DNA of 57,455 nt from Stentor roeselii. Lineage: Eukaryota; Ciliophora; Heterotrichea; Heterotrichida; Stentoridae. The position numbers and the translations under genes are program-made. The stretch covers positions 1 through 57,455 of the forward strand of contig RSEH01000284.1 in assembly GCA_006503475.1 (NCBI GenBank), read 5' to 3'. Positions 78 through 44,771 of this stretch are shown in pieces; within the stretch, counting starts at the first letter, position 1; each line of letters starts with the position of its first letter. Under the pieces are notes generated by a model that searched no databases, was not told the DNA's origin, and saw only the letters and a program-made list of their open reading frames with translations.

Positions 78-146
78 TTTTTTTATCTTATTTATCCTTC
101 ATACCCCAAACATCTATAAATTCTCAACAATTACCGAAGAATCGAA

Positions 147-219: not shown

Positions 220-289
220 TTTTTCGACTTATTAGGCTGAATAATCACAAACCTCTATTAATTCTGAACAATAATCGAAGAATCATGAA

Positions 290-363: not shown

Positions 364-434
364 TTTTTTGTCTTTTTTAGCCTTACTAAGCTCAAATATC
401 TATTAATTCCATCACTTATCTAACAAATCATTAA

Positions 435-508
435 GGTCCCATAGCTCAGCCGGTTAGAGCGCTGTGCTAATAACGCAGAGGTCCTGAGTTCGATCCTCAG
501 TGGGACCA
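435..508 (+). tRNA. tRNA-Ile (AAU), copy 4
   Basis: Body identical to copies 1 and 3, with a T-run directly after it. It lies just before the 3' end of the minus-strand gene at 526-1149, so the last tRNA terminator and that gene's stop codon are less than 20 bp apart. Confidence 0.96.
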
Positions 509-9580: not shown

Positions 9581-10846
9581 TCAACTTTCATCATCATCAT
9601 CCCCTGAAAAACTTACAGTACAGCCAGTACTATATTCACTACATAGATCACTAATATCACTCTCACTTTGAAAAAATTCCATTTCATCCATTCCTAATTC
9701 TAAATATTTTCCAAGTTGAACTTTCTCTCTAATCAATTCACCAAACCCTCGATTTAACCTCAAGAACAAACTCCTAATATCCTGAGAGTTTTGAATGTAA
9801 CTAAAAGACTTGGAACTACTACTATTTGAAGTTTCAATTGAATGAAACATTGAACAAGGTTTGATCCAATCCACAAACAATCCAGGATTATTTTTAACCC
9901 AAGAATTAAAACAACTTTTCTCATTCCTCTGAATTTTTCCCCTAGAAATTAAAATCGAAGAATAAGTCCTCGAGTTTTCCAAGCCATTCTTATAAAATCC
10001 ACTTGAATTATCTAGAGTTTTAATCATCATCTTCAAAGAATCCTTTTCATTCTTCACTTCACATGAAGAGTTCATCAAGTAAAAATGAAGCCTGATGAAA
10101 GGTGATAAAAAAGTATTAATTTTCTGATAAGTTGAAAAATTATTCCCAGGGTATCTTAAAAGACTAGTAAAATCTGAAACCTGTTGCCTGATAATTGAAT
10201 TAACTGCTGAAAACCCTTCAGTCCTTGAAACTCCTTCAAAAAGTTTACAGTTATCAAAACAAACACATAAATTTGAACTTTCCACCAACGAATAAATCGC
10301 CAAGCAAGAGTTAATTGTTTCATTCGCTGTTTCTAAACCAGGAATTCCTACAAAGTTAACGAAATTTTTACTTGGATTTTCTTCTACTAACTGATTCAGC
10401 ACTTCTTTCATTAGACCTGAACCTGTCCCTCCTCCGATTGAGTGAAAAAACTGAAAAACTTGGAAAGATTCGCATTTTTCTAATTGTTTTCTGCAGGTTT
10501 CTATGATTTTTGCGATTAACTCGTGATTTAATTTACCTGATGCGAAGTTTTTATTAGTGCTTCTGGTTCCAAATACCTGGGAGTCACTTGGATATAAAGA
10601 TGATGATGGAAAGTTGGATAAATGATTCATTGTTGATGGGTCTGAATCGATTATCACTGTTCTTGGATGATATGTGAAATCTGATGATTCTGAGAAAAAG
10701 ACTGAAGGAAGGGAATTGGGATCGCTGTCACTGTAGTCGATGTCGCCTGATGAGGATATTTTATGCTCATTGTTTAGGTCTTCCCAGAACATGTTGGCTA
10801 GAGTGTTACCGAAGTGACCTATTTGTAAGGTAATTACTTCTTTCAT
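9581..10846 (-). CDS. Divergent beta-type tubulin, 421 aa
   Basis: Tubulin superfamily. The start MKEVITLQIGHFGN parallels the beta-tubulin MREI.HIQAGQCGNQ opening. The GTP signature GGGTGSG is intact at residues 138-144. NFASG sits where beta-tubulin has NWAKG, and the C-terminal helix ends with GMDEMEF.ESE..DL.SEY, as in beta-tubulin. Against this, identity is low throughout and the protein is about 25 aa short. The segment at the beta-tubulin G.LNADLRK contact loop reads GNNFSTYQK. The acidic tail is short (GDDDDES). It is therefore probably not the main axonemal beta-tubulin but a derived paralog; ciliates are known to carry extra tubulin families. It could have a basal-body or cortical role, which is inference. 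Confidence 0.9.
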   Translation of the reverse strand: MKEVITLQIGHFGNTLANMFWEDLNNEHKISSSGDIDYSDSDPNSLPSVFFSESSDFTYHPRTVIIDSDPSTMNHLSNFPSSSLYPSDSQVFGTRSTNKNFASGKLNHELIAKIIETCRKQLEKCESFQVFQFFHSIGGGTGSGLMKEVLNQLVEENPSKNFVNFVGIPGLETANETINSCLAIYSLVESSNLCVCFDNCKLFEGVSRTEGFSAVNSIIRQQVSDFTSLLRYPGNNFSTYQKINTFLSPFIRLHFYLMNSSCEVKNEKDSLKMMIKTLDNSSGFYKNGLENSRTYSSILISRGKIQRNEKSCFNSWVKNNPGLFVDWIKPCSMFHSIETSNSSSSKSFSYIQNSQDIRSLFLRLNRGFGELIREKVQLGKYLELGMDEMEFFQSESDISDLCSEYSTGCTVSFSGDDDDES

Positions 10847-10943: not shown

Positions 10944-11987
10944 TCAATATTTCCATTTTGGGTGAAGGTTTTCTAAAGATCCAGATCTTCTTATTGACTT
11001 GATTTCTGGTAATTTTTCTATTGAGGTTCTTCTAGAAAGTTTCATTTCAGCATTTGGTTCTTGAATCAAAGTTGGTATAACATGATTTTTATGAAAGCAA
11101 TCACCTTTAGCATAGATAACTTTAAACTCATTATTTTTTGTATCAGTCTCAATCCCTTCTCCATCCTTCAGGTCATTAAACCAACTTCCTTTATACGAAA
11201 GTTGTTTTTCATCAAATGGCAGAAATTTTCCTAATCCACTTCTTTCACCTTGGCTGAAATCCCCTTTATATACATCTCCATTTGAATAAATCTTTAGTCC
11301 TTGATACTTTCTTTTGGAAGGGGATCCTAAATTAACAATTCTCCCTTGATAAATCGACCCATCTGCAAATATCTCAATTCCAAACCTAGGTCCTCCCTCT
11401 TCATGATCCTCCATTCCAATAAAGACCCTTCTATGACTGGATTCATTTTCATTGAAAATTTTAAACATTTTCTTAAACTCCATTGGAAAATAAAAAGAAT
11501 TCGATTTGACTCGTTCCTTGCATTGTAAACTCAAAATTCCACTAAAAAGTTCAGGTCTTACCATGAATTTTCCCTCATCATTTTCAAAGAACTTCTTATT
11601 TATCGACCGGTCACATACAAAAAGTTTGTTTTTTATCAGATTCTTGATTTCTTGATAGACGTCTTTGTTTAGAATGACAGGAATGAAAAAATTCATGAAT
11701 TTTAACCCTTCATTTGTTTCTTCTAATTGTTTTAAGATGTTTATTTTAGATTTTTCAAGTTGTTTACAGATTTTTTGGTAAGTGTCGTTGATGATCTTTC
11801 GACAGTTTTTAAGGCTGTTTTTTATTTGATATCTGTTAACTTTTTCTATTGATTCTTCTGATAATTCTTCTATTGAAGCGCTTGATTTAGTTTTGGGAAG
11901 ATGATCTTTACATGAATGAGTGATCGATGCTCCTTTTTTTACCCTGTGTGAGGCTGGTCTATAGCAGTCTTTAGACTCGCAAGACAT
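10944..11987 (-). CDS. MORN-repeat protein with N-terminal Cys/His zinc-like motif, 347 aa
   Basis: Three to four MORN-like units occupy about residues 203-280 (IYQGRIV, KYQGLKIYSNGDVYKGDF, SYKGSWFNDLKDGEG). MORN repeats commonly link membranes or cytoskeletal elements in protists. The first 35 residues contain C..KDCYRPASHRV and SCKDHLP, a spacing like a B-box zinc-binding half. A coiled-coil-prone region follows (50-110). It is clearly paralogous to the next gene (12318-13367) along its full length, so a local tandem duplication is inferred. The C-terminal 40 residues are basic and Ser-rich. Confidence 0.88.
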   Translation of the reverse strand: MSCESKDCYRPASHRVKKGASITHSCKDHLPKTKSSASIEELSEESIEKVNRYQIKNSLKNCRKIINDTYQKICKQLEKSKINILKQLEETNEGLKFMNFFIPVILNKDVYQEIKNLIKNKLFVCDRSINKKFFENDEGKFMVRPELFSGILSLQCKERVKSNSFYFPMEFKKMFKIFNENESSHRRVFIGMEDHEEGGPRFGIEIFADGSIYQGRIVNLGSPSKRKYQGLKIYSNGDVYKGDFSQGERSGLGKFLPFDEKQLSYKGSWFNDLKDGEGIETDTKNNEFKVIYAKGDCFHKNHVIPTLIQEPNAEMKLSRRTSIEKLPEIKSIRRSGSLENLHPKWKY

Positions 11988-12317: not shown

Positions 12318-13367
12318 TTAAAAGTTATTCCAAGGAATTTTTTCTGCAATTCTTTTTCTAATAATTTGATTACCAGGCTTCTTATTAGGACTAATTGTAC
12401 GAGGCCTAGCATGTATAACTTTTCTTTTTTGTTGATTTTCCTGCATTTTTAAATATTCATCATATTCAGATTTTGGAACTTTGTTACCATTGATATAATA
12501 ATAGATTAATTTTCTTCCTTCACCAGGTATAAGAGTCGCTTTTCCAATTAATTTATCATCATGCCATGAACCTTCTATCTTTGTTTTATCATATAATAAT
12601 GATAAACCCTCTCCATGTCGCTTACCTCTTATGAATTTTCCATTATGCATATCCCCATTCTTATAAATTCTTATCCCTTCGTATGATTTAGTGGGATCAT
12701 TAGAGTTAATCTTACCTTGAAATAAAGATTCATCTTCATAAATTTCAATACCATATTTATCTCCTTGTTTATCATTTTCTTCATTTTGATCCATTCCTAT
12801 GAAGTATTTCACTTGATCTTTTGGGTACTCATTTATCATTTTGAATTTTTTTAAAACATTTATAGGAAATTCAAAAGAAAACTCTTCACAAGTTTTTTTA
12901 CACTCTTCACTTACAAAATGATCAAAGAAGTGTGGTGTCACTTTGAACGTATTTTCGGTTTTCTTTATAAAAGGTTCCTTTATATCATTTTCATCAATGA
13001 ATAAATCTTTTTCTATTAACAATATAATACTCTCAAAAATTTCAAGTTTTACTTTGATAGGAATGAAACTCGCCCGATATTTTATCTTATTTTTGCGTTG
13101 TTTGAGCAAATCGATAATTCTTATTTTAGTTTCATCTATTTTTTTAGATATTGTTTCACAATATCTATTGATATCACTTTTACATTCATAATACGAATCA
13201 TCGATCCTTTTTTTGTTTAGATCTTTAATTTCTTCGGGTGATAATGGATCGCAATTTGATTGATAGTGTTCAAAACAATAATATAATATTTTATTATTCA
13301 CTTTTTTTTTATATTCTACAGGTAAGTAGCACTTTATGTTGGTGTTATCATCATCGCACATATGCAT
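12318..13367 (-). CDS. MORN-repeat protein, tandem paralog, 349 aa
   Basis: Same architecture as 10944-11987. An N-terminal Cys/His segment (CDDDNTNIKCYLP...CFEHY) is followed by a coiled-coil-prone region, then the shared block where FIPIKVKLEIFESI aligns with FIPVILNKDVYQEI, then MORN units near 205-285 (LFQGKI, SYEGIRIYKNGDMHNGKF, IEGSWHDDKLIGKA). The tail is Lys/Arg-rich. Divergence is high and A/T-ending codons dominate, more so than in its partner. The frame opens ATG CAT ATG; the second ATG (complement of 13359-13361) gives a start matching the paralog better. Confidence 0.87.
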   Translation of the reverse strand: MHMCDDDNTNIKCYLPVEYKKKVNNKILYYCFEHYQSNCDPLSPEEIKDLNKKRIDDSYYECKSDINRYCETISKKIDETKIRIIDLLKQRKNKIKYRASFIPIKVKLEIFESIILLIEKDLFIDENDIKEPFIKKTENTFKVTPHFFDHFVSEECKKTCEEFSFEFPINVLKKFKMINEYPKDQVKYFIGMDQNEENDKQGDKYGIEIYEDESLFQGKINSNDPTKSYEGIRIYKNGDMHNGKFIRGKRHGEGLSLLYDKTKIEGSWHDDKLIGKATLIPGEGRKLIYYYINGNKVPKSEYDEYLKMQENQQKRKVIHARPRTISPNKKPGNQIIRKRIAEKIPWNNF

Positions 13368-24144: not shown

Positions 24145-25140
24145 ATGCTTCTGGAATCGTTAGGAAATCTGATAAGTTTCAAAGACTTCAGCAGCAAATA
24201 CCTTCGAAGCCAGATCCAATACCTATTCCTTTCAATGCTAGTCCTGCTAATCCCCTGGACACTGAAGTTCCTAACAACTTTCACCGAAATCGTCCAAAGT
24301 CTAAAGCAAGGAAACCCAAATTACCCATGGCCAAGTTATTCAGACTTCTTGAAATCCTTGTTTTTTTCATTATTTCTACTAGGAATTTCAACATTATTCC
24401 GAAAATTCCTGACATCAACAGGAGACAAGTTGATTTCCTTGAAGTACAAAGGAGAAGATCGTTCATTTCGAGCAGAAAAACTGGTGGACTGTACATTTAA
24501 AGGAATTTACTACTTGTTTAGTTCAACTCTCGGGTACTTCATAGCGAAAGACTGCGATTTCCTCACTTCTCGACTAGGTGGCCATGGTTCTTCAGTGAAT
24601 TCATTCAAAGGGTACCCGTACCAGTCTTACTCGAACTACGAAGAAATCAAGTTTTACCTCGTGATGCAACTGGGGTATCACCTGTTTTCCTTATTTCAAC
24701 ATATCTTGAAAAAGCCGAAAAACGACTACATTGAGATGTTGCTTCATCATCTGATGACAGTGGCACTGATAGGACTTGCTTACTTCATGAACTATGTCGC
24801 GATTTCAGTGATTGTCCTCATGGTTCATGACTTTTCAGACGTTTTCGGGTATATTGTTAGAGTTTTCGTTGATACCAACTTTAAAGTAGTGACCCTCGCA
24901 GCGTACCTCGGGCTTCTTATCAGCTGGCTTTATTTGAGACTTGTTGTTTTTCCTTTCGACATTATTTACTATGGACTTTACCTGAATTTAGAGATTTTTG
25001 ACTTGCCAGGAACGATTTTATTAGCTGTTATGCTTCATTGTTTAGTGGTTTTACACTTGTATTGGTATTATCTCTTCATTCAAATGGGTCTCAAGTTCCT
25101 GAAGACTAAAACCACACAAGACACTTATCATGTCGAATGA
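24145..25140 (+). CDS. Ceramide synthase (TLC domain), 331 aa
   Basis: Polytopic ER membrane enzyme that N-acylates sphingoid bases with acyl-CoA. The TLC/Lag1 core is clear: DYIEMLLHHLMTVALI with the double His 201-202, followed by MVHDFSD (His228, Asp229) in the next helix; both are the conserved catalytic Lag1 residues. Six or more hydrophobic helices run from residue 25 to 325. No Hox-like domain is present. The first ATG (24145) gives MLLESLGN; an overlapping plus frame starting at 24132 is a shadow. Ends in TGA. Confidence 0.93.
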   Translation: MLLESLGNLISFKDFSSKYLRSQIQYLFLSMLVLLIPWTLKFLTTFTEIVQSLKQGNPNYPWPSYSDFLKSLFFSLFLLGISTLFRKFLTSTGDKLISLKYKGEDRSFRAEKLVDCTFKGIYYLFSSTLGYFIAKDCDFLTSRLGGHGSSVNSFKGYPYQSYSNYEEIKFYLVMQLGYHLFSLFQHILKKPKNDYIEMLLHHLMTVALIGLAYFMNYVAISVIVLMVHDFSDVFGYIVRVFVDTNFKVVTLAAYLGLLISWLYLRLVVFPFDIIYYGLYLNLEIFDLPGTILLAVMLHCLVVLHLYWYYLFIQMGLKFLKTKTTQDTYHVE

Positions 25141-25176
25141 GAACTTTAGTTAGTTCTAAACTTAAATTATTATTTT

Positions 25177-25734
25177 TCATAGTTGGAACATCTGCGATGT
25201 TCGGAAAATCCAGGGTGATAAGTTTTCACGGAATTTTGAAGGAATTTTCAGAGAATTTCGACGGTCTTGAAGAGCTGATGTTGTTCGTAACTTGGAATTT
25301 AAATCGGCTAATTGGAATGTTTTGGATTTTATGTCGGTTTTCTCGGTTTTTCGCTTTTGGGGTTGCGTGGGACTTTGGACTTTTTCGTGGAAGACCATGT
25401 TGAAATCGAGGGATTTTGATAATAATTGGAAACTCTCGATTTTGTAGTCTTTTGGAGTTGAATCGTGACTTGAAGGGATTGATGTTGAGAGACGAGCTCG
25501 TTTTTTTATGAATTTTTTAGATGAGTCTTCGATTCTGACTGGTGGCAAGTAAATCGCTTTAGGGTCTCTGGGAGATTCAACTTTAACCTCAACAAGAGTT
25601 TCTCGATTAAGCAAAATCCTATCATAAACACTTTCAGTAAAACGTGAAATTCGGTAAGGATTATACTTATTCATAGAAGCAATGAAAGTTCTTTTTCGTT
25701 GTTCTGGAGTTAATCCAGGATTTAATACTTCCAT
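25177..25734 (-). CDS. Hypothetical basic protein, 185 aa
   Basis: No recognised domain. Residues 1-50 (LTPEQRKRTFIASMNKYNPYRISRFTESVYDRILLNRE) look helical and conserved-like; the rest is Lys/Ser/Arg-rich and probably disordered. Minus-strand gene convergent with ceramide synthase (36 nt between stops) and 37 nt downstream of the next minus gene. Supported by ATG, length and the typical spacing only. Confidence 0.68.
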   Translation of the reverse strand: MEVLNPGLTPEQRKRTFIASMNKYNPYRISRFTESVYDRILLNRETLVEVKVESPRDPKAIYLPPVRIEDSSKKFIKKRARLSTSIPSSHDSTPKDYKIESFQLLSKSLDFNMVFHEKVQSPTQPQKRKTEKTDIKSKTFQLADLNSKLRTTSALQDRRNSLKIPSKFRENLSPWIFRTSQMFQL

Positions 25735-25771
25735 TTATCAAATAAACTAATATACAATAAATCTCAATTTT

Positions 25772-26500
25772 CTAAAGAATCTCGATTTTCCTTTTAACAT
25801 CCTGAAGTTCTTCCATCAACGACTTTTCAATTTCAGTTAAAAGTTGCAGATTCCTTATTTCCCCGCTTAAACTTCTCAAACCCATCCTTTTTTCACGTAA
25901 AAACTGATTTTTTAACGTTGAAAGTGCTTCAAAAGTCGATTTTATCTCGAGAAAATTATTGATTTCCTTGTCTTTCACCTGGTTTAGCAATGAAGAGTTC
26001 TCTATTCTCAGATCTTCTAAAGTTCCAAGGTCTTCAGCAGGCGATTTTAGGCAAATTTGAAGGAATTTTATTTTTTCACAGGTTTTTTCAAGTTTGCATT
26101 GATTTTCGTTTAGTTTTTGACTTACTTGGGACTTTTCTTTCTCGAGGGATAATAGGATTGAGAAGGTATCTGAAAAATCTCTTTGAAGGAAACGGGATTT
26201 TCGGTTTAGATCTTCGATTTTTAGGAAGTTTTCGGAATTGGATATGATTTTAGTTTGGAGATGGTGGCTTTCTTGCATTTTTTTTATGCTTGTTGAGGTT
26301 AGTTCTGAGTTTTCTTGGTGGATCTGGTCAATTCTAAATTTCAAGTCCCTCTCCAATTCCCTAACCATCTCCCAACACTTCTCACACAAGCCCTCATGAA
26401 AGCTTCCCCTTCTATTTCCAAAATCTTCCAAATTTTCAAAACATTCACAACAAGGAGTATTTTCAGCAGAAGTGACTTCATCAGAGTCTTCCCCAATCAT
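25772..26500 (-). CDS. Coiled-coil protein with N-terminal Cys cluster, 242 aa
   Basis: Residues 17-45 hold CCECFENLEDFGNRR...LCEKCWEM, two CxxC-type pairs that could bind one zinc ion. From residue 50 to the end the protein is almost continuously charged and helical (coiled coil, e.g. LEKEKSQVSQKLNENQCKLEKTC). No orthologue named. Its start lies only 8 nt past the stop of the TBC gene on the same strand. The composition of the DNA flips near 26335, inside the frame. Confidence 0.78.
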   Translation of the reverse strand: MIGEDSDEVTSAENTPCCECFENLEDFGNRRGSFHEGLCEKCWEMVRELERDLKFRIDQIHQENSELTSTSIKKMQESHHLQTKIISNSENFLKIEDLNRKSRFLQRDFSDTFSILLSLEKEKSQVSQKLNENQCKLEKTCEKIKFLQICLKSPAEDLGTLEDLRIENSSLLNQVKDKEINNFLEIKSTFEALSTLKNQFLREKRMGLRSLSGEIRNLQLLTEIEKSLMEELQDVKRKIEIL

Positions 26501-26508
26501 GACAAAAT

Positions 26509-27570
26509 TTATATTGAAAATTTAGATATATTATTAGAAATACTCTCAGAAAACTCTTCAATAATGCTTTTAGTGTGAATAACTTGTCGACTTTCCCAGT
26601 TAGTCTGAATAGTTTCATTCTCATCAACTTCCTGACTAATACTATAAGACCTTACCGGAAAATCCTGCAATACAGGCCTGACCTGAAACTTAACACTATT
26701 AAACAGGACTAAATCAATATCAAGTCCTTCTTCTTTCAACAAGGGTAAAAACTCTAGCATATCTTGAAAAGACTTTCCAAGTAAGTCACTTTTGATAGTT
26801 TCCACAAGTCCCAAAGCGACATTAATCATAAAATTCAATCCATTCGCAAAGATATTATCCCAAATGCGTACCACACATTTGAAATGAAAAGAATGAGAAA
26901 AAATCGTCATAAACCATTTGGTAAGCCAGAGGTGGTCATCAAAATCAATATCTTTAAGAAACCTCGACACTTCCGGCATTTTACATTCCAAAACTCGATG
27001 AAACTCTTGACAAGATTTTCCAACAAGAGGAAATTCATATTCAAACAAGCTCTTTCCACCCAGTGCAAAGCAAAGCCTGTCAAGCATTCCAAGAGATTCA
27101 GCCTGATCATTAGTGACGATGAGGAAGACCCCTGCGAGTGAGTTCATTCCTTGGCAGTAGCCAAGTTCTGGGTGGTAGTTGACAAGTGACAGAAGAACGT
27201 TCTTCAAAGCTTCTCTGTTCTTGGAACGTGAAAAGAACTTGTGGTTCGGAAAAGTCCTTTCTATGTCTTTTTCGATGCACAGGTGGTCCTCGTGAGCTGA
27301 CATGTCAAGTGGCAGTACTCGAGCACTGTCTAAAGCTACTTTCCATACCAACCATCGCATGTCCTCTGGAGGACCTTCTTCAAGGTACCTTTTGAACTTG
27401 TCGGGATGGGATTCTTTGAACTTTTCTAAGCCTCGGAAAGTTAAACCGTAACGTTTTCGGATGTTTTCCCAACGTTTTGAGATTTTTCGGATTAACTTCT
27501 CGTCTATCGCTTCGGTTAAGGTCTTTTTAGGAGCTTTTGAATCGGGTTTTAAAGAGGACTTGTTCCCCAT
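26509..27570 (-). CDS. TBC-domain Rab GTPase-activating protein, 353 aa
   Basis: TBC domain from about residue 60 to 290. Both catalytic fingers are present: the arginine finger in IEKDIERTFPNH (R105) and the glutamine finger in YCQGMNSLAG (Q140). GPPEDMRWLVWK precedes them and HLWLTKWFMTIFSHSF follows, as in the family. It should speed GTP hydrolysis on a Rab. The N-terminus MGNKSSLK fits N-myristoylation, suggesting membrane anchoring (inference). A decayed copy of its 5' half lies at 28975-29523, and the sequence just upstream of its ATG is conserved in both copies. Confidence 0.93.
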   Translation of the reverse strand: MGNKSSLKPDSKAPKKTLTEAIDEKLIRKISKRWENIRKRYGLTFRGLEKFKESHPDKFKRYLEEGPPEDMRWLVWKVALDSARVLPLDMSAHEDHLCIEKDIERTFPNHKFFSRSKNREALKNVLLSLVNYHPELGYCQGMNSLAGVFLIVTNDQAESLGMLDRLCFALGGKSLFEYEFPLVGKSCQEFHRVLECKMPEVSRFLKDIDFDDHLWLTKWFMTIFSHSFHFKCVVRIWDNIFANGLNFMINVALGLVETIKSDLLGKSFQDMLEFLPLLKEEGLDIDLVLFNSVKFQVRPVLQDFPVRSYSISQEVDENETIQTNWESRQVIHTKSIIEEFSESISNNISKFSI

Positions 27571-27576
27571 ATATTA

Positions 27577-28320
27577 TAAGTTTAAGATTAGAAAATTTAA
27601 AAAACTTGTCAGTAGGGTATGCAAGAATACCATTTAAAGTCGGCTTGAGTTTTTAGATACAATAAAGATTTTCCATTCATTCTTGCTCGATTTTTTCCAA
27701 TTATATAATATTTTGTTTGTTTCCTTCGTAAGGTTCTATTCTTTTTGTAACTTTTTTAGGTACTCCTAGTCTTTCTTCAGAGTCAGATAATAAAGACTAG
27801 AATTTGCAATGATGAATAGTTTTGATAAAGTTAGTTTTGCTTTCTTTTCAGCTCTGCCTAAGTTTAAAAAACAGTTTTCATGTAATTTTTTTTAGTTTTC
27901 GAGATCATCTGAGTTAATGCAACTAGTTTTGTTTGATAAGTTTGTTTTGTTTGATTATTTATTGCAAGTTATTCGTATTTCTTACTGCTGGGCATGAAAT
28001 TATATTTTTTTGTGTGAGGATTATTTTTTTTTAGTTTTTTGAGGACCGTCTCTTAGTTTTAAGAAGATTTTATGTTTTCTTTTTATTAAATGAATTATTT
28101 TTCAGTTATTCTTGACAATAAAGAAATTATTACGTTTTCAAGTGTTTGATTTTTATTCTGTCTTTTCGTTTTATTTTTAACTGCAAAATTTATTTCCTTT
28201 TGTTTTCAAATCGTGGCGGGTAAGAGATTTGTTTAAAATTAAGCTTTTCGAATGAAATTTATGGAAACTTGGATTTGTTGAATCGTTTAATTCGTGTTTT
28301 CTTTGATTTATTTATGATTA
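27577..28320 (-). pseudogene. Decayed copy of the coiled-coil gene at 29530-30321
   Basis: Plus-strand sequence from 27577 runs parallel to the coding region 29530-30321. The 3' end shares ttaaagattaaaaaattt-like text and the Pro-free coiled-coil codons; the best anchor is 28180-28291 against 30189-30302 (cctttt, then gtggcgggtaagag versus gcggcgggtgagag, then aagcttttcgaatga and acttggatttgttgaatcgt). Many indels and stops break all frames and the start codon CAT has become TCT. The copy is about 50 bp shorter than the intact gene. It sits directly upstream of the intact TBC gene, mirroring the order of the intact gene and the TBC remnant. Confidence 0.85.
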
Positions 28321-28974
28321 TTCGATTATGTAAAATTCTTATTTGAGAATTTTTTTATCCTCATACTATATATTTGAATTTTCTAATTTAAGGCTAAAAA
28401 ATTTTCTGTTATATTGAATTATGGCAATCGGTTAATGATAAAGAAAATTAGAACCTCTATAAATCCTAAAGAAATAAAAAATCTGCATGCCTTCTTTTAA
28501 TTCAGAGAGTGGATTAGAGTCGGTTATTGAAGTATATCCAATCTTCGATCAATTGATATTGGTGTTCTGAGGATTTAGATATTTCAAAATGATATCCTTT
28601 AATATTTTTTTTATTTCTTTTTATTATCTATATTGATAAAACATCCAAATAATTACTTTTTCTCATTTTCGATTAAGACTTCCTCAAACTCTAGAAATTT
28701 GTCTACACATGGTTCATGGATCTGATATTTATCTATTTAATTATAGCTAATATTTTATTTAAGTGGCTTGCAATTTACATAATATCAAATTAAAATTCCT
28801 CTTTCACAGACCCAAATATTCAATAAAATTTTTAGATAGTATTAAATATAAATATCACTTACAAAGAAAAATAACGAAAATATATTAAACACTTTAAAAT
28901 ATCAAAAATATTCTAATATTATTTAGTTATTCTTTGAATTTTCTCAATAAAGAACATTCTACATTGATAGAGAT
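28321..28974. other. AT-rich gap between the two pseudogenes
   Basis: About 650 nt, very AT-rich, with no convincing frame. By position it should hold the lost 3' half of the duplicated TBC gene, but I cannot align it by eye. Confidence 0.5.
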
Positions 28975-29523
28975 CCTGCCAAACATTCTGAGACTTTCAG
29001 CATGTCGTTCGTTACAAGAAGAGACTCCGATGACTGAGTTCATTCCTTACAGTAGCCCAGCTCTGGGTGGGAGTTAACTGGTACATCAGCGCTTTCTTCA
29101 ATACTTCTTTATTTTGAAAGCGAAAAACTTATGGTTTGAAAAGTCTTTTCTATGTCTTTTTCGATGCGCAGGTGATTTTGGTATGGAAAAGTGTCGAATG
29201 GCAGTAATCGGGCTCTGCCCGATGCCACTTTCGACATCAGCTGCTGCAGATTGTCTTAAGATCCTTTTAAAGAATTTTTTATTTTCCTATGAAAGTCGTC
29301 CATTCATGTCTGGAATATTTTCCTATTACTTCGAGATATTGGCTTAGCTTATTATCTATATCTTCATTTTAGTGTTTTTCTAAGATTTTAGTTATTTTTA
29401 AAGAGGGGTGAGTATTTTAGGGTCTTTGGTTGCACTTTTATCACCCTGGAAATTTTCATATGAATCATGATGCACTGAATAAACTTAAAGTTTATTCTTC
29501 ACTCGAACAAGAGGACTTTCCCT
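28975..29523 (-). pseudogene. Decayed 5' half of a second TBC RabGAP gene
   Basis: Plus-strand 28975-29290 aligns with 27080-27395 of the intact TBC gene: gagtgagttcattcctt(ggc)agtagcc, tgggtgg.agtt, cttttctatgtctttttcgatgc.caggtg and a weak match through the arginine-finger region. It carries single-base deletions, for example in the codons before the RTFP motif. At its 5' end, caagaggact...tattataagtt(a)aagatta matches 27552-27587, but the start codon CAT is now CAA. It is about 550 nt, half the length of the intact gene. Confidence 0.87.
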
Positions 29524-29529
29524 CAAATA

Positions 29530-30321
29530 TTATAAGTTAAAGATTAAAAAATTTAAAGACTTGTTGACAGGAGATGAAAGAATACTATTCACTGTTTGCT
29601 TTAGTTTTTGGGTAGACTGAAGCTTTTCCATGCACTCCTGTTCAATTTTTTCCAGTTGTATAATTTTCTGCTTAGTTTCTTCTTGATTTTCTATTTCTTT
29701 TTGTATCTTTTTTAAATATTCCTCATCTTTCTGCAAAGTCAAGCAATGAAGACTTAAATTTTTACGATGATGAATTTTTTTGATATTTTCATGAATCTCG
29801 CATGTAATTTTTTGCTTTCTTTTCAACTCCGCCTCAATTTCCAAAACAGTATTCATATAACTTTCCTTTATCTGCGAAATCATCTGCGTTCTTTGCATCT
29901 GATTTTCTTTGACCAATTTCGTTTTATTTTGTTTGATTTTTTCTTGCAAATTTTTCGCTTTTAAAAGGTTTTCCTGTTGTTGAGCATAAAGTTTTTTTTC
30001 ATTTTGACTGCGAAATTCGTTGTTTTTGAGTTTTTCTTGAGTGACCTCATCTCGAAGTTTTGAGTAGTTTTCATGTTTTTTCTTAGTTGAATCAATCGTT
30101 TTTTCTGTTTTTTCTTGTTCAGAATTCAAGAAATTTATACGATTTTGAAGTTGTTTCAATTTTTTATCAAGTTCTTTTCGTGTTGTCTTTAACTGCCACA
30201 TTTCTTTTCCTTTTGTTTGAAAATCGCGGCGGGTGAGAGAGTTATTCAAAACAAAGCTTTTCGAATGAGATTTACGTGGACTTGGATTTGTTGAATCGTT
30301 TAAACTACTCGGGTTGTTCAT
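29530..30321 (-). CDS. Coiled-coil protein, 263 aa (surviving duplicate)
   Basis: After a short Ser/Asn-rich N-terminus (SPRKSHSKSFVLNNSLTRRDF) the protein is one long charged helix from about residue 40 to 245, rich in Lys, Glu and Gln (KELDKKLKQLQNRINFLNSEQEKTE), typical of a coiled-coil rod. No family named. A decayed copy lies at 27577-28320. ATG is the complement of 30319-30321; the divergent gene starts 66 bp away. Confidence 0.85.
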   Translation of the reverse strand: MNNPSSLNDSTNPSPRKSHSKSFVLNNSLTRRDFQTKGKEMWQLKTTRKELDKKLKQLQNRINFLNSEQEKTEKTIDSTKKKHENYSKLRDEVTQEKLKNNEFRSQNEKKLYAQQQENLLKAKNLQEKIKQNKTKLVKENQMQRTQMISQIKESYMNTVLEIEAELKRKQKITCEIHENIKKIHHRKNLSLHCLTLQKDEEYLKKIQKEIENQEETKQKIIQLEKIEQECMEKLQSTQKLKQTVNSILSSPVNKSLNFLIFNL

Positions 30322-30387
30322 TGATTTTATTGTTATGGTCGAATATGGTTTGAATTCGGGAAGAAATGATTAAGTGACTTGGTTATA

Positions 30388-31041
30388 ATGAAAAAAGCGC
30401 ATCCGATCACAGCTGTTAGTGAAGAAAGTCCTAACAACTTTCACGTCAACAACGGAATGGTTTTAAGTCAAATCGAGAAAAACGAGAGAATATCTTCAGA
30501 TTTTTCCAGCAATCGTTTCTTGAACCGTCTAAAAAAAAATAACATCTACGACAAGCCGATGTTTAACTACTCTGATATAAGAAATCAAGCATTTGACTAT
30601 CATTCTATTACTCCAAGTAAAGCTGTTGACTTAAGCTATGGACTTTCTCCAGGACTTCGTTCATTGACGCCTTTCTCCTCAAAATACTGCAAGTTTCTAT
30701 CAGAAGGTTTCGGGAAAAGACGGGGACAATTCACTTTAGAAGCTTCTCAAAGCAAAGTACCAAGACTGGGCGTGAACGAGTTTAATTTCATCAGCAATCA
30801 AAAATTTAGATTCACGAAAAAAGAGAAAGTTTCAGAAAAAAACTTGAAAAAAGTAGAAATTCTTAAATTTTTAGCGAAGTCTGAAAAAAGAACGAAAAGT
30901 AGAAGTACTGATGGATCAACGACTCCGAAAATTAAGAAATCTTTGAGGCAAATTGATGAATTCGAACAGAACTTGCTGAAGTTTAAAGCAGGGTCCAATG
31001 ATCGGCTTCCGAGAAATAAACATTTTTATGATTTGAGCTAA
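30388..31041 (+). CDS. Hypothetical basic protein, 217 aa
   Basis: ATG at 30388 (MKKAHPITAVSEES) is the first true ATG of the frame. No recognised domain. It is basic overall, with a Lys/Ser-rich C-terminal third (KKEKVSEKNLKKVEIL) and aromatic motifs (YGLSPGLRSLTPFSSKY). It may be a cytoskeleton-associated protein. First of four closely packed plus-strand genes; the next start is 15 nt past its stop and no GT-AG intron fits that gap. Confidence 0.75.
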   Translation: MKKAHPITAVSEESPNNFHVNNGMVLSQIEKNERISSDFSSNRFLNRLKKNNIYDKPMFNYSDIRNQAFDYHSITPSKAVDLSYGLSPGLRSLTPFSSKYCKFLSEGFGKRRGQFTLEASQSKVPRLGVNEFNFISNQKFRFTKKEKVSEKNLKKVEILKFLAKSEKRTKSRSTDGSTTPKIKKSLRQIDEFEQNLLKFKAGSNDRLPRNKHFYDLS

Positions 31042-31056
31042 TTTGATATTAACTGG

Positions 31057-31932
31057 ATGAGTTTTAACTTAACTACTGTTCTTGAAAAACGACTCAAAGT
31101 CCTTCCGAATAAGGCCACTGTGGGCGTTCAGGTCATGATGCATGAGAGCAGGTTTGAATCGAAGCAGAAACCTCAAAGGAGACATTCTTGCTTTATTCCT
31201 GCGGAACTGTCAGTCACCAGTACTCATCGAGATGCGAAAATAGGGACTGAGCCTGTGAAACCAGGCCAAACCGAGTCATCAACAACAAAAAGCCTTAACC
31301 AATCCCTAAGATACCGTCTAAAAGGAGTGATGGCCGAAGAAAACATCGAAATCGAATCCATAAACGAAACCAACAAAGTCCTTCGAGTTGAGCTTTTAAA
31401 AGCAAGAAAGCATCTTCTACATCAAATGTAACCTAAAATCAGGATGTCCTACAACGAAAGACCTCCAGGAACACCCAGGTCTTTCCGATTCCAGCCAATC
31501 TCAATTCCCAGTCCAGTTCAAAAAACGACTAAAAAGCCAAAAAGTCCATCACCATTGTCAGAATCAGTAAATTTCATAAGTCACAACAAGCAAACCTTAT
31601 TCAACATAAAAACATCAAGTCCTCGACCAGTCTCCGACAAGTTCTGGGTGAAAACAATGAGAAAAACTGCAATTCTTCAAAAACATGGAAGTTTTGACCT
31701 GACAACCTGTGAAGCAGAAGTGCAAAATAAAGATTTCTCTAACTCCGAATGGAAAAAAAGGCCCCAAACAGGGGTTTCTATTAATTTACTCGACTTTTCT
31801 GATTTCACTGGCGAGGTTATGGTAAATCCGAGCTACGCCTATTGCGGAAGCTGTCGAAAAGGAACTGCTCCTATTTCTCTTAGAGGCAAAGATATGAGGC
31901 CTAGAGCGACTTTTACTAAAACTTTTGAATAA
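31057..31932 (+). CDS. Hypothetical two-exon protein, 286 aa
   Basis: Two frames (31057-31431 and 31444-31932) are joined in phase if the 15-nt GT-AG element at 31428-31442 is removed. The codon AT|G is then rebuilt and the product reads ...LLHQMMSYNERPP. The exon sum is 861 nt, 286 codons plus stop. Exon 1 encodes a polar N-terminus and a helical segment (MAEENIEIESINETNKVLRVELLKARKHL); exon 2 is Pro/Ser-rich and ends with YAYCGSCRKGTAPISLRG. No family is known. If the element is not spliced, these are two genes 12 nt apart, the second starting at 31444. Confidence 0.72.
31428..31442 (+). other. Probable 15-nt GT-AG intron
   Basis: GTAACCTAAAATCAG. It starts GTAA, holds CTAAAA as a possible branch-point region and ends CAG. 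It contains the in-frame TAA that closes the upstream frame, and its removal joins two adjacent frames in phase. Confidence 0.72.
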
Positions 31933-31941
31933 TTTCATAAA

Positions 31942-32853
31942 ATGGACAAACTTTCCTTTATGATCAGAGAACTTTCAGTCGCTCTTTACACTGAACTGGA
32001 AAATTCTGATAAAGAAATCTTGGGCAAGTCACTTTCTTTACTTTTAGACACCTCAGCTGAAGAAACTTTAAAAAATTTTCAGAATTTATTCAATTTTTTA
32101 ACAAGTTGTCAGAATAAGATCAAAGATTCACAAATTTTTAATGATTTTGCTGAAGTTGAAGCTTATCAAAGAGCTTTGCAGAAACTTGACAGTGAGGTTC
32201 GTAATCATATTAAACATGAACTTCAGATGAAGGTCTTTATTGACGCCCTTGACGAGAAAATCAGGGAGAAAAAAAGCTTGAAAATGAAGGATTTTCGTAA
32301 AAACTCTGGAAATATCGAGGAATTAGAAGAAGAAAATAAAAAGATAAAGAAAAAAATCGAAAGTGTTCAAAAAGAAATTGAAGACTTTTCAGCTCCTTCA
32401 AACGCGACTGACGAGTACGAACTTTTTTTTTTAAGAGAAAAAGTTCAGAAAGAAAACGAAAAAATTGCAGACTGTGAAAAAATCGGTTTAAAATTAGTTC
32501 AAAAATGTACAAATGTAAAAATTGAACTTGATTACCTATCAAGACAATACGAGAAGTTAAAAGACGATTTTTTAAACCTAAAATCTGCCATCTCAAAAAC
32601 TGACAATTCCCGAAGTCTCAGTCGAAGTAACGAGCGCCGTGATCTAATAAAAGACAGTTTCGACATAAAACTAAAAAACAGCGTAACTCCAAACGACCGT
32701 TCAACATCTCCAATTCCAAACCAATCATCAAAAATATCGAAGACAATCAGCAGCAAGCGACTGGAAGTAACACCCTTGCGAAAAATCCTGACAGTAGACC
32801 AGCCTCGTTCAAAGTTAAAAATTTCAAGTTCACTTCAATCAAAGAGAAAATAG
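31942..32853 (+). CDS. Coiled-coil protein, 303 aa
   Basis: Residues 1-60 are helical without strong charge (LSFMIRELSVALYTELENSDKEILGKSL). About 75-210 is a coiled coil (EELEEENKKIKKKIESVQKEIEDF, LREKVQKENEKIADCEKIG). The C-terminal 90 residues are Ser/Arg/Lys-rich and probably disordered. No family recognised. It starts 9 nt after the previous stop (aaaATGG context). Confidence 0.78.
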   Translation: MDKLSFMIRELSVALYTELENSDKEILGKSLSLLLDTSAEETLKNFQNLFNFLTSCQNKIKDSQIFNDFAEVEAYQRALQKLDSEVRNHIKHELQMKVFIDALDEKIREKKSLKMKDFRKNSGNIEELEEENKKIKKKIESVQKEIEDFSAPSNATDEYELFFLREKVQKENEKIADCEKIGLKLVQKCTNVKIELDYLSRQYEKLKDDFLNLKSAISKTDNSRSLSRSNERRDLIKDSFDIKLKNSVTPNDRSTSPIPNQSSKISKTISSKRLEVTPLRKILTVDQPRSKLKISSSLQSKRK

Positions 32854-32871
32854 TTTTTTCCATAAATAAAA

Positions 32872-34284
32872 ATGAACAAATACAGTCACCGTGATTCTCT
32901 ATCGAAATTCACGAATTCTCATAAAATCCTTCAAGGACTATCTCCGATTCCTAGTCCTTTGTCAGAACTTGTTGAGTTGCCCAGGTCGCAAAAGTCTTAT
33001 TTTAATATTCGACTGGCTCCTGTTGTCAAAGGGGAAATTGGAAAATCGCATAAAAAGACTGCTTCTCAAGATATTACCATCGCAAATAGTCTTGCTTATG
33101 TCAGTGAAAGGCAACCTTCGATTAGTTCTTTTACTGTCGCTCAGAATGAAATGGTCACTGAATCGTTACAGAGAATTCTTCAGGATCACAAAGTTCATCA
33201 TTGGTTCCCTGATTTGGAAACTGCCACTATGATGAGGTCTGATAAGGACTTTACTCAACTTATTAATAAACTTAATCGGGTCATTTATCCGGACTTGAAT
33301 AGAAGACCTGTTTTTTTGAATGAAGGAGAACCTCTTGATTTTAGTGTTGATGAAGGACAGGTTCAGCTTTGTAAAACTTTTGCTAAAGGGAAAAGGACTC
33401 CATTAATCATGAAAATTTTCAAATTCCGAGGCAAAGTCTTAACATACGTCTCATTTTTTGACAAGAACCCAGGTCCAAACAACTACGACCGGTTCTACTC
33501 ATCCGAGTACTTCGAGATCCGCGAAAACGCTCAAACCTTCAAATACCAATACATCTACTTCGCCTTCAAGGCAACTGAAGACTCCGACTTTAAAGTAACC
33601 TTAACATTCGGAAAGATTTCCGATTTAAACGAGGTTAAAAAGCTGAAAAGACAACTATCACAACTTCATTTAGGTAAAAATTCTCCTGATTCTTCTTCTC
33701 CATTATTCGTGAAATCAAAAATCGAGAAAAATTTTGTTTCTCTTAACAAAAGTATCAAGTTTCTCAATTCACATCTCAAGGCACCTGAGTTAAAGAAAAG
33801 AGCAAAAGACTGGGAAATCAAACATTCCCAAGTCTTGAGTAAAAAAAAGATCTTGCTTATTGAAAAAATGCAAAAAAATCAGAATTTCTTGAATAAACAG
33901 GTCATCAGGCAGAAGATTCGGAAACATGAGCAGGAAAAACAAAGTGAAAATGAAATGAAAGCTGCTGTGCAGAAGAAGTGGCTTGAATTTATGTTTTTTG
34001 CTAGTTCTTTAAAGGAAATTAGGAAGAAAATACAGGAAACTAGGACGAAAACACTGAAAAAAATCACTTTTAATATGAAAGCTTATCAAATTCAGAAAGT
34101 TTTTAAAGAGTATACGTCGAATATGGAGGTGCAAAAAGCTGTTGTTGCTAGGGCTAGGAATCATTTATTGTTTTTTAGGGAAAATGTCTTGCATCAGTCG
34201 CTGAAAACAGTTAAATCAAAGATATTTGACTTTATTGAGTGCATTTCACATAAAAATGTGACAACGAGGCACTTTACATTTTAA
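32872..34284 (+). CDS. Hypothetical protein with a beta-rich middle and helical tail, 470 aa
   Basis: Residues 1-130 are Ser-rich and flexible. About 155-250 (QVQLCKTFAKGKRTPLIMKIFKFRGKVLTYVSFFDKNPGPNNYDRFYSSEYFEI, in parts) looks like a beta-sandwich or jelly-roll domain; I do not recognise the family. From 290 to the end it is basic and helical, with motifs such as WLEFMFFASSLKEIRKKI and AYQIQKVFKEY that recall IQ-type helices. A composition switch occurs near 33400 (to A/C-rich) and back near 33680. Confidence 0.8.
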   Translation: MNKYSHRDSLSKFTNSHKILQGLSPIPSPLSELVELPRSQKSYFNIRLAPVVKGEIGKSHKKTASQDITIANSLAYVSERQPSISSFTVAQNEMVTESLQRILQDHKVHHWFPDLETATMMRSDKDFTQLINKLNRVIYPDLNRRPVFLNEGEPLDFSVDEGQVQLCKTFAKGKRTPLIMKIFKFRGKVLTYVSFFDKNPGPNNYDRFYSSEYFEIRENAQTFKYQYIYFAFKATEDSDFKVTLTFGKISDLNEVKKLKRQLSQLHLGKNSPDSSSPLFVKSKIEKNFVSLNKSIKFLNSHLKAPELKKRAKDWEIKHSQVLSKKKILLIEKMQKNQNFLNKQVIRQKIRKHEQEKQSENEMKAAVQKKWLEFMFFASSLKEIRKKIQETRTKTLKKITFNMKAYQIQKVFKEYTSNMEVQKAVVARARNHLLFFRENVLHQSLKTVKSKIFDFIECISHKNVTTRHFTF

Positions 34285-42132: not shown

Positions 42133-43068
42133 ATGAAATTCACTGATAGTGATATTTTAGAGATTTTTCAACAGATTCAAGGGTTTTCTTCACTGGACAT
42201 TGTAGTACAGAGGGTTTTCAGTGGGACCAATTTTGTTTCTATTGTTTCTGCTGGTGACTTTCAAACTTCCCCAAAAAAAGCTATTTTTCGAGAATTCGGC
42301 TCTTGTGAACTGATCGATGCAGAAAGAGAAAGAATGATTTTTGAACTTGCTTCAAACTCATCAGTGGGGCCGAAGATGCTACTTGAAACCCAGGAATATC
42401 GCATAGAAGAGTTTTTAGAAGGAAAGACAATGGAAAGAACTACCTGCATCAATTATCTAAAATCAACAGCAGCAGCCCTAGCCGAGTTCCACAGTTTAAT
42501 CGACTGCAGGTCCAGTGAAAACTCAATCCTTGCCTATCTTCACAACTGGAGATCAAAACTAAACAAAAACCTTTCCTCATCATCAACCCTAAAAAAAATT
42601 TCCCTTTTACATGAAATCGACTCAAACTTCGATGAAGTCGCGACTTGGCAGTGGCCTTCTTCAGAAAACGTTTTAAGCCACAATGATTTTTCATATGGAA
42701 ATTTGATAGTCCAAGACGAAAAAGTGAGAATCATTGATTTTGAGTATTCAGGTCCAGGCCACCCAAGCACGGACCTTGCAAGTTTTTTAATTGAGACAAT
42801 GTTCGACTTTTCCCAAAGCGATTATCGCTTCTTTCCTCAAGACGAGCTTCCCTTGCAAGACCAGAAATCCCTAATCTTTCACTATTGTCAGTTAAGAAAC
42901 CTCGACGGGGAAGACATGTGGCTTAAAGTTAAGAAAAGTAAAGCAATTGTCTGCTTTTTAGGAGCTTTATGGGCAGGGTGTAACTATTCAGAAGAGAAAC
43001 CTTCAATGATTGACTACGCTTTTATCAGACTGGAACTTTTTAATAGGTTCAAAAACGAATTATCTTAA
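42133..43068 (+). CDS. Choline/ethanolamine kinase family, 311 aa
   Basis: CHK/APH-type kinase for the first step of the Kennedy pathway. The Brenner motif LSHNDFSYGNLI (H183, D185, N190) and the metal-binding IDFEYSGPGHPSTDLASF (D202) are typical of choline/ethanolamine kinases. The N-lobe (EIFQQIQ...FVSIV) is less clear, and the length is a little short of the ~380 aa norm. Substrate choice cannot be read. The true ATG is at 42133; the frame begins at a GTG just upstream. Its stop overlaps the stop of the convergent gene. Confidence 0.9.
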   Translation: MKFTDSDILEIFQQIQGFSSLDIVVQRVFSGTNFVSIVSAGDFQTSPKKAIFREFGSCELIDAERERMIFELASNSSVGPKMLLETQEYRIEEFLEGKTMERTTCINYLKSTAAALAEFHSLIDCRSSENSILAYLHNWRSKLNKNLSSSSTLKKISLLHEIDSNFDEVATWQWPSSENVLSHNDFSYGNLIVQDEKVRIIDFEYSGPGHPSTDLASFLIETMFDFSQSDYRFFPQDELPLQDQKSLIFHYCQLRNLDGEDMWLKVKKSKAIVCFLGALWAGCNYSEEKPSMIDYAFIRLELFNRFKNELS

Positions 43069-44771
43069 GTTTTCTTCAGGTTAGGCCGAAATGTGCAGTC
43101 TTTTAAAGCGAACATTTCGTTGATTTCTTTATGTTTCTGTGCTCGCATTTCTGTTAGTTTTTGAGCTGATACTAAACGTTCGTAGAGGTCGTCCGGCATG
43201 TCGACTCTTTTCTTTTCTGCGAGTTTTACTGAAGCTTGGCTGACAAATGGTTTGCTTTCTGGAAGAAAAGGCACTTGTGGCTTTGTGTCTCTTTTTAACA
43301 AATGGGCTCGGTCATCAACGTTAAGGGTCTTTGAAATGATTTCGAGACGTTGGATGAAACCTTTAAAGTCAACCTCAATGTTTGACTCTTGAAGGTCGTC
43401 AAAAAGTGGCTTGAGGATTAAAACAGTTCTTTCGTCGATATGGTCAAGAGTTATGCTGTTCGCAGAGATTAAACCGTCTTTGTCTTGGTCAAGGTTGTTG
43501 AAAATTCTTTCGTATTGCTTTTCTTTAAAATCATTAAAGATCTTTTTAGTGTTTTCAGTCGTTTTTTCTGCTGCTGCATTTGCTTCCCAGAACTTTTTAT
43601 CACTGGCCAGGTAACTTTCTCTTTCTTTCTTTATTTCACTGTCTTTTGAGTAAAGAATTTCCCAGACTGGTCGATCGCGAGGCTCTATTTTGCTTTCGGT
43701 GATTGGAGTGAATAACTTTTGACCTGTTATTGAATCGATGTCTTCGATGCGACTGTTTCGAATTTCTTCGATTTTGGAATCGAATTCTTTTTTCGCGTTG
43801 AAGAGTCTTTCATGAACTGGCTGATCACTGGTTTCTTTTTTTTTGGTCAGTTGGACGTTTGGAGCGAAGGAGTACTGTTTTAAGTCATTTTCTTGCTTTT
43901 GAAGCATCTTTTCCTTTATTTTTTCAGCCTGGCCATATAAGTTTTCATAAATAGTCTTCTCACATTTTTCCCTATGTACAGGGTTGATAATAGGTGCGAA
44001 TGTACATTCTTTAAGTTCATCCTGATCATTTTTTTCTTTCATCATTTTAATCTTCTGCTTAGTTGCCTCCGCTTTTTTCAACAAGACCTCTTCCGGTTTT
44101 TCATAATACCTAGGAGACATTAGACTTGAAACCTTATTAATCGCAGGAGTGAAAGTCAAGTCCTTAACCTCCTGATCATCTTTTTCCCTTTTCTTTTCCT
44201 CAACCGTTTTTTTCGCAGCTTCTTTCATTTTCATTCCTCTAACATAAAGCCACTCTCCATAATTAATATTATTTGCAGAGCGACTTTTGCTAGTAACATC
44301 TAAAGTTTTAACACTTTCTTTCGTTTCGACTGTTTTTTTCGATTTCTGGTAAAGACGGTCATAGACAGTGCCTCGTCTTTCACACTTCGACAAGATTTTC
44401 CTTGATTTTTCATTAATCTTCGGAGTGAAAGAGTCGAACTTATTGTTAATCTGCGACGCGTAATGTGAACCTGGCCAATCAGACCATTTTTCAAAGTCAA
44501 CATCATTGTTCTTCTTTTCAACAATGTCCTTGTTTTGCCTGATGAGCTTGCTAAGAGACTTTTGCAATGACAGGTCAAGGTTATGCTTATTTGCGAACTC
44601 TTGCGCAAGGAAACTAGGGTCGTCATCTTCATGAATAGCGATGATGTCAGTTCTGCCATCTCCAATTTCAACAGTCATGACAAGGTACTCTTGATTTTTG
44701 TTAACATCCGAGTTAAGAGTCTTGTCATGGAAACTATCTTCTTTTTGCGACATGCTGATAGGATCTTCCAT
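43065..44771 (-). CDS. EF-hand protein with repeated F-x-P motifs, 568 aa
   Basis: A ubiquitin-like/PFU-type segment near residues 27-85 (VMTVEIGDGRTDIIAIHEDDDPSFLAQEFANKH) opens the protein. Then come repeated short motifs LTFTPAINK, CTFAPIIN, YSFAPNVQ, KLFTPITE and CTFRPN, with long charged helices between (KKMKEAAKKTVEEKKREK). An EF-hand-like loop, LDQDKDGLISANS, sits near 440. Similar F-P repeat proteins occur in ciliates and apicomplexans and are often flagellar or cortical; that is from general knowledge. The true ATG is at 44771 (MEDPISMSQ). The stop codon overlaps that of the choline kinase gene. Confidence 0.82.
   Translation of the reverse strand: MEDPISMSQKEDSFHDKTLNSDVNKNQEYLVMTVEIGDGRTDIIAIHEDDDPSFLAQEFANKHNLDLSLQKSLSKLIRQNKDIVEKKNNDVDFEKWSDWPGSHYASQINNKFDSFTPKINEKSRKILSKCERRGTVYDRLYQKSKKTVETKESVKTLDVTSKSRSANNINYGEWLYVRGMKMKEAAKKTVEEKKREKDDQEVKDLTFTPAINKVSSLMSPRYYEKPEEVLLKKAEATKQKIKMMKEKNDQDELKECTFAPIINPVHREKCEKTIYENLYGQAEKIKEKMLQKQENDLKQYSFAPNVQLTKKKETSDQPVHERLFNAKKEFDSKIEEIRNSRIEDIDSITGQKLFTPITESKIEPRDRPVWEILYSKDSEIKKERESYLASDKKFWEANAAAEKTTENTKKIFNDFKEKQYERIFNNLDQDKDGLISANSITLDHIDERTVLILKPLFDDLQESNIEVDFKGFIQRLEIISKTLNVDDRAHLLKRDTKPQVPFLPESKPFVSQASVKLAEKKRVDMPDDLYERLVSAQKLTEMRAQKHKEINEMFALKDCTFRPNLKKT

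What the first reader, a model, noticed from the sequence alone, without database searches (positions are those of the whole stretch)
26509..30321. Tandem duplication of a two-gene unit with reciprocal loss of one gene in each copy
The order is: intact TBC gene, decayed coiled-coil gene, gap, decayed TBC gene, intact coiled-coil gene. Sequence between the TBC start and the coiled-coil stop is conserved in both copies (27552-27600 and 29505-29560). Copy 1 kept TBC and lost the coiled-coil gene; copy 2 did the reverse. In both decayed copies the start codon CAT is lost (CAA, TCT). It is a rare, clear case of reciprocal loss in cis that leaves the original gene set unchanged but the genes about 2 kb further apart.
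Basis: seen in the sequence. Interest (0 to 1): 0.8.

Follow-up and report, generated by a model that had tools for sequence, protein, structure and literature searches.

The report
Tandem duplication, both inner copies decayed
In a compact ciliate genome two neighbouring genes were copied in tandem, the two inner copies decayed while the two outer ones stayed intact, so the gene set is unchanged and a 2-kb stretch of dead sequence now separates the pair: a clear but ordinary case of duplication followed by gene death.

Summary
27552-28330 matches 29509-30347 (72%, E 4e-114) and 27076-27343 matches 28975-29232 (74%, E 3e-33). The outer genes, TBC1 (26509-27570) and coiled-coil CC2 (29530-30321), are intact; the inner copies are full of frameshifts and stops. 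Trees put each decayed copy beside its intact twin, so the duplication followed the split from the nearest sampled relatives.

Two corrections. (1) The decayed TBC is only a 5' half-gene (codons 15-165); its 3' half is not detectable in the gap, and simulated decay says it should be. (2) "Reciprocal loss" need not be two losses: with breakpoints inside TBC and in the CC promoter spacer, both inner copies were defective at birth. Against this, about 600 bp of AT-rich junction DNA stays unexplained, and third-position data hint that the second TBC was once under constraint.

The class is known: duplication followed by loss (duplication-random loss), here with gene order kept. Interest is modest.

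The parts
25772..26500 (-). intact gene next to TBC (242 aa, called ZnF here by eye from cysteine pairs; no Pfam match); 8 nt after the TBC stop; not seen in the tandem unit
   Evidence: a diverged TBC-ZnF pair also exists at G000:C25
26509..27570 (-). TBC1, intact Rab-GAP TBC gene (353 aa), the kept TBC copy
   Evidence: PF00566 E 1.8e-46; relatives P0007 to P0025
27552..27601 (-). junction kept in both units: end of CC reading frame, TAA, TAT, ATG of TBC; now 5' flank of TBC1
   Evidence: 89% over 37 nt without gaps; 45 of 51 columns identical against 571 of 800 elsewhere in the CC alignment
27574..28330 (-). psiCC1, decayed coiled-coil gene, full length, start codon read AAG at 28303-28301
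   Evidence: 72% to CC2; 24 frameshifting indels, 12 stops in 217 ungapped codons; frameshift-aware z 38.0
28331..28945. unmatched AT-rich junction DNA (GC 22%), where the 3' half of the second TBC would be expected; right edge set by eye
   Evidence: no convincing similarity to TBC residues 166-353, to 25772-26500 or to 30388-31041; no second match found in the genome by a search that skips simple repeats and very common words; power check
28946..29526 (-). psiTBC2, decayed 5' half of TBC (codons 15-165), start codon read TTG at 29526-29524; the safe match begins at 28975
   Evidence: IEKDIERTF of TBC1 reads IEKDIEKTF
29530..30321 (-). CC2, intact coiled-coil gene (263 aa), the kept CC copy; no Pfam match
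   Evidence: four relatives at 47-70% identity, 4 of 4 keeping the ...FNL C-terminus
30322..30387 (.). 66-nt spacer between CC2 and the divergent + strand gene; only its CC-side part has a detected counterpart in unit 1
30388..31041 (+). divergent neighbour gene (217 aa), right flank of the duplication, not convincingly found in the gap

Best explanation
One tandem duplication of a minus-strand segment running from inside TBC (near codon 165-177) through CC into the 66-nt spacer before the divergent gene at 30388. In transcription order the result was CC2, TBC2, CC1, TBC1. The outer copies kept everything: CC2 its native upstream spacer, TBC1 its 3' half and downstream neighbours. The inner copies were born defective: TBC2 lacked its C-terminal half, and CC1 was cut off from most of its upstream region. 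Both then decayed neutrally. What looks like reciprocal loss is thus set by position. SHOWN: the homology, the decay, the undetectable TBC half, and (by trees) the placing of the duplication after the split from the sampled relatives. INFERRED: that the half was missing from the start and that CC1 lacked its promoter.
For: Two colinear matches in tandem. Frameshift-aware alignment covers TBC 15-165 at z 46.6; the C-terminal half against 28331-28974 gives z -0.7. Simulated decay of that half at substitution 0.25 and 0.35 never scored as low as the real gap (0 of 100 each; 2 of 100 at 0.45; 72 of 100 at 0.55). psiCC1 is sister to CC2 (99/99; 92/90 with the other threading), branch 0.83 against 0 and 0.06. 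psiTBC2 is sister to TBC1 (100/96; 96/93), branch 0.65 and 0.77 against 0.013 and 0.044. First- plus second-position divergence is alike in the two pairs, 85 of 480 and 26 of 172, Fisher p 0.48, fitting deaths at about one time. The CC position ratio 0.64 (CI 0.45-0.90) fits death at birth.
Against: A simple tandem duplication leaves no extra DNA at the joint, yet about 600 bp of unmatched sequence lies there; an insertion must be added. Third positions in the TBC pair differ more than death at birth predicts: ratio 0.32, CI 0.18-0.55; p 0.11 at omega 0, 0.053 at 0.1, 0.025 at 0.2. That hints that TBC2 was once under constraint and so complete. Third-position divergence also differs between the two pairs (62 of 240 against 32 of 84, p 0.037), which one shared age does not predict without different synonymous rates. 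The tree tool warned that the long psiTBC2 branch makes its place unsure, and the second CC threading is not starred. The promoter of CC is not known.
Confidence: 0.55

Rival explanations
1. Duplication-random loss: a complete CC-TBC unit was copied, all four genes worked for a time, then one of each pair was lost independently; the 3' half of TBC2 was later deleted or replaced by the junction DNA.
For: Third-position excess in the TBC pair. The gap 28331-28974 (644 bp) is about as long as the missing half (564 bp) plus a small spacer.
Against: No trace of the 3' half where it would be expected, so an extra deletion-replacement is needed. CC shows no sign of a period of shared constraint. Both decayed copies have similar divergence at positions 1+2.
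Confidence: 0.36
2. The block 27577-29523 has a kept use (non-coding RNA, regulatory spacer, chimeric transcript) and is not only relic.
For: It has persisted in a window with median gene spacing of 66 nt; 27552-27601 is more conserved than the rest.
Against: Frameshifts spread over both relics and codon-position differences in CC that fit neutral decay; no Rfam family in it, the window's 5 matches being tRNAs elsewhere. The conserved strip can be explained as 5' flank of TBC1 and 3' coding end of CC2.
Confidence: 0.07
3. Chance similarity or assembly artefact.
For: None found; the region is AT-rich, which raises chance scores.
Against: E 4e-114 and 3e-33; 0 of 200 dinucleotide shuffles for each of the two matches; copies 72-74% identical, too far apart for a misassembled repeat.
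Confidence: 0.02

Closest known systems
Duplication-random loss (tandem duplication-random loss, TDRL) in animal mitochondrial genomes (PMC5745709, passages seen)
   Same: A stretch of genes copied in tandem, one paralogue of each pair lost, pseudogene remnants left between kept genes.
   Different: Ciliate nuclear genome; gene order unchanged; losses probably set by the breakpoints and not random; one inner copy is only a half-gene.
Reciprocal gene loss (divergent resolution) between duplicates or populations (26 papers hold the search terms, 15 listed; listing only; the concept itself is recalled)
   Same: Different members of duplicate pairs are lost.
   Different: There different lineages or duplicate blocks lose different copies; here both losses lie in one tandem array, and no lineage with the opposite outcome was seen.
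Dead-on-arrival partial tandem duplicates (recalled; the one search for the phrase with four other terms returned 0)
   Same: Truncated or promoterless copies decay without ever working.
   Different: Here two defective copies, one per gene, would come from one event.

Membership tests
Duplication-random loss | two or more adjacent genes duplicated in tandem, same orientation | tested here: met
   full CC and 5' half of TBC
Duplication-random loss | one member of each pair non-functional | tested here: met
   (by sequence; no expression data)
Duplication-random loss | both members of each pair complete at birth, so that either could be lost | tested here: inconclusive
   TBC2 3' half not detectable, but third positions hint at former constraint
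Duplication-random loss | unduplicated order known from relatives | not testable with these tools
   protein search gives no context; scans of viral contigs and genome contigs gave no locus of a relative
Processed (retro) pseudogenes | copy of one spliced transcript inserted elsewhere | tested here: not met
   copies adjacent, same strand, two genes and their joint copied together
TBC (Rab-GAP) family, for TBC1 | TBC domain with the IxxDxxR and YxQ motifs (motifs recalled) | tested here: met
   PF00566; I99, D102, R105 and Y138, Q140 invariant in the 5 aligned sequences

The most novel reading that the evidence does not exclude
The original pair had CC's stop codon only 3 nt before TBC's start (TAA TAT ATG), in one frame, in a genome with many same-strand neighbours 8-18 nt apart. 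The relic block then cut TBC and its downstream genes off from CC's start and the divergent promoter, yet TBC1 stayed under strong constraint. So TBC either carries its promoter inside the last ~50 nt of its neighbour's coding sequence (kept at 88% in the dead copy), or is still read through 2 kb of relic: a natural test of whether such tight gene strings are co-transcribed.
Probability: 0.3. Interest if true: 0.5.

Novelty: new member of a known kind. Interest (0 to 1): 0.3.

Why it matters
It is a readable snapshot of how a tandem duplication is undone while gene order and content stay the same, and a caution: mirror-image loss need not be two chance events when the breakpoints cripple both inner copies. 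It also offers a natural experiment on where promoters sit in very compact ciliate gene strings.

Tried and rejected
Chance similarity: rejected. Retroposed copies: rejected (two genes and their joint copied together). Gap as decayed TBC 3' half: rejected at the decay level of the neighbouring relics. Gap as a copy of the divergent gene 30388-31041 or of the gene 25772-26500: no firm support; DNA against 30350-31050 gave z 2.3 locally (7 of 200 shuffles as high) but -0.4 globally, and the protein comparison z -0.3; for the 25772-26500 gene DNA z -0.4 and 0.5, protein z -0.5. Gap against the window's ORFs of 60 aa or more by tblastn: only weak hits, best E 0.003 to an unrelated short ORF. An inverted repeat at 28307-28446: blastn with lax scoring reports it at E 7e-7, but the best self-inverted score of 28301-28974 is not above dinucleotide shuffles (47 of 200 as high). 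CC remnant in the 477 bp upstream of the C25 TBC: none. Loci of relatives in viral contigs: none; in genome contigs: one stretch of a bacterial MAG, 38% over residues 99-158, not pursued. Papers on ciliate tandem pseudogenes: 5 listed, none opened. Naming the organism: only 'heterotrich-like' could be reached (nearest named proteins in the 120 listed hits: Blepharisma 55% and Stentor 53%; Stentor 47-48% for TBC).

Full report
The window is contig C212 of an unnamed 44.4-Mb, 522-contig genome. Its long ORFs read with the standard code, and it is gene-dense. Among ATG-started ORFs of 100 aa or more the 35 neighbour gaps have a median of 66 nt, and 7 of 17 same-strand gaps are under 20 nt. For the kinase at 52054-53520 the nearest named proteins among the 120 listed of 4,077 hits are of the heterotrich ciliates Blepharisma stoltei (55%) and Stentor coeruleus (53%). 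For TBC the nearest named one is Stentor (47-48%). The organism is therefore heterotrich-like; by these identities I infer it is not S. coeruleus.

Self-blastn of 25001-31500 against the window gives two distinct non-self matches: 27552-28330 with 29509-30347 (72.3%, E 3.8e-114) and 27076-27343 with 28975-29232 (73.5%, E 2.9e-33). No dinucleotide shuffle of 200 reached either score. The first ~70 codons of TBC are much less well kept (27344-27551 against 29233-29508: local z 4.3, global z 0.0). The intact genes are TBC1 (26509-27570, PF00566 E 1.8e-46) and CC2 (29530-30321, no Pfam match). Against CC2 the decayed copy has 32 indels, 24 frameshifting, and 12 stops in 217 ungapped codons. The decayed TBC segment has 9 indels, all frameshifting, and 1 stop in 78 codons.

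The second TBC is only a half-gene. A frameshift-aware protein-DNA alignment follows TBC residues 15-165 in 28975-29530 (z 46.6, 40 shuffles) and finds nothing of residues 166-353 in 28331-28974 (z -0.7; the relative P0007 gives -1.0). DNA comparison of 28351-28940 with 26440-27045 is below the shuffles (z -1.1 local, -1.4 global). If the 3' half had decayed as far as its neighbours, it should be seen: 0 of 100 simulations at substitution 0.25 and 0 of 100 at 0.35 scored as low as the real gap, 2 of 100 at 0.45, 72 of 100 at 0.55. The gap DNA (GC 22%) had no second match in the genome, in a search that skips simple repeats and very common words, and matches no neighbour convincingly. Its origin is unexplained.

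Timing. The protein search found 4 relatives of CC besides itself and 20 of TBC besides itself. In the CC tree (4 of 4 relatives, CC2 and psiCC1) the relic is sister to CC2 with 99/99 support when threaded on CC2, and 92/90 (not starred) when threaded on P0002. Its branch is 0.83 in both; that of CC2 is 0 and 0.06. At sites where CC2 and P0002 differ, the relic shares CC2's letter at 31, P0002's at 7 and neither at 20 (27, 11 and 18 with the other threading). In the TBC tree (18 of the 20 relatives; P0009, identical to the C25 gene, and the Babesia hit P0026 left out; plus TBC1, C25 and the relic) the relic is sister to TBC1 (100/96 and 96/93), with relic branches 0.65 and 0.77 and TBC1 branches 0.013 and 0.044; shared letters are 27 with TBC1, 4 with P0007, 17 neither (17, 5, 14 with the other threading). 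The tool warned that the long relic branch makes its place in the TBC tree unsure. Threading on a twin favours the twin; the second threadings, on P0002 and P0007, are the check. Both genes tell one story: a duplication after the split from the P0002/P0007 lineages, with nearly all later amino-acid change on the relics.

When did each copy die? In CC the divergence at positions 1, 2 and 3 is 48, 37 and 62 of 240 each; in TBC it is 14 of 86, 12 of 86 and 32 of 84 (the same pattern under five gap settings). The ratio of positions 1+2 to 3 is 0.64 (CI 0.45-0.90) for CC, as expected if it was dead from birth. For TBC it is 0.32 (CI 0.18-0.55), below that expectation at p 0.11 (omega 0), 0.053 (0.1) or 0.025 (0.2). 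The TBC figure rests on 256 sites. It is the main evidence against the born-dead reading. Positions 1+2 alone do not differ between the pairs (p 0.48), while third positions do (p 0.037).

Reading. With breakpoints inside TBC and in the spacer before CC, one event gives the pattern seen: complete outer genes and defective inner ones. As a mechanism it may be one event and not two losses. I put this at 0.55 and classical duplication-random loss at 0.36.

The joint. In both units the CC stop is followed by TAT and the (former) TBC start, so the original genes were 3 nt apart in one frame (sequences). In unit 2 this is the coding end of CC2 (...FNL, kept in 4 of 4 relatives); in unit 1 it is the 5' flank of TBC1. 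The TBC start is credible because 3 of the 4 relatives aligned begin MGNK (P0014 does not), as does P0008, with MGNS in Stentor.

Older history. A TBC-ZnF pair also lies at C25 (TBC 57%, ZnF 29% identical), with another gene upstream and no trace of CC in the 477 bp before TBC. TBC-ZnF thus looks like the older pair. Of the 7 CC-like matches outside the window, only one, on C516, shares a contig with a TBC match, about 29 kb away; the neighbours of one of the seven (L011) were read and hold no TBC ORF. Both match lists are lower bounds.

Known kinds. The duplication-random loss model describes tandem copying, loss of one paralogue per pair and lingering pseudogenes in mitochondrial genomes (PMC5745709, passages including part of the abstract). 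Compact heterotrich genomes with short intergenic regions are described for Blepharisma (PMC9942806, passages). Among the titles listed by five searches (15 of 32, 10 of 10, 15 of 26, none, 5 of 5) I saw none on a ciliate case like this. That is a statement about those listings only.

Noticed in passing
window 4-508: Tandem array of four tRNA-Ile (AAT) genes, starts 143-145 nt apart; the second (147-219) is diverged and scores lower in Rfam (61.7 against 66.3 bits).
   Followed up: partly
window 30388-34284 and 25177-27570: Strings of same-strand genes with tiny gaps (five + strand genes with gaps of 15, 12, 9 and 18 nt; TBC and its neighbour 8 nt apart), operon-like spacing for a nuclear genome.
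   Followed up: partly
window 42133-44771: Convergent genes whose reading frames overlap by 4 nt (43065-43068).
   Followed up: no
G000:C25:23129-27178 (L002): Paralogous TBC-ZnF gene pair, an older two-gene duplication of the same neighbourhood without CC.
   Followed up: partly
window 10944-11987 and 12318-13367: Neighbouring same-strand genes, 33% identical over 268 aligned positions: an older tandem pair, the first with a MORN match.
   Followed up: partly
window 9581-10846: A diverged tubulin-superfamily protein of 421 aa (PF00091 E 5.8e-37).
   Followed up: no
window 26509-27570 and 52054-53520: Relatives of the TBC and kinase proteins share 'longest contig' lengths (53,146 for P0007 and P0062; 117,974 for P0015 and P0030; 23,252 for P0017 and P0047), suggesting kept synteny in related ciliates.
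   Followed up: no
window 28331-28945: About 600 bp of AT-rich DNA of unknown origin at the duplication joint, no second match found in the genome.
   Followed up: yes
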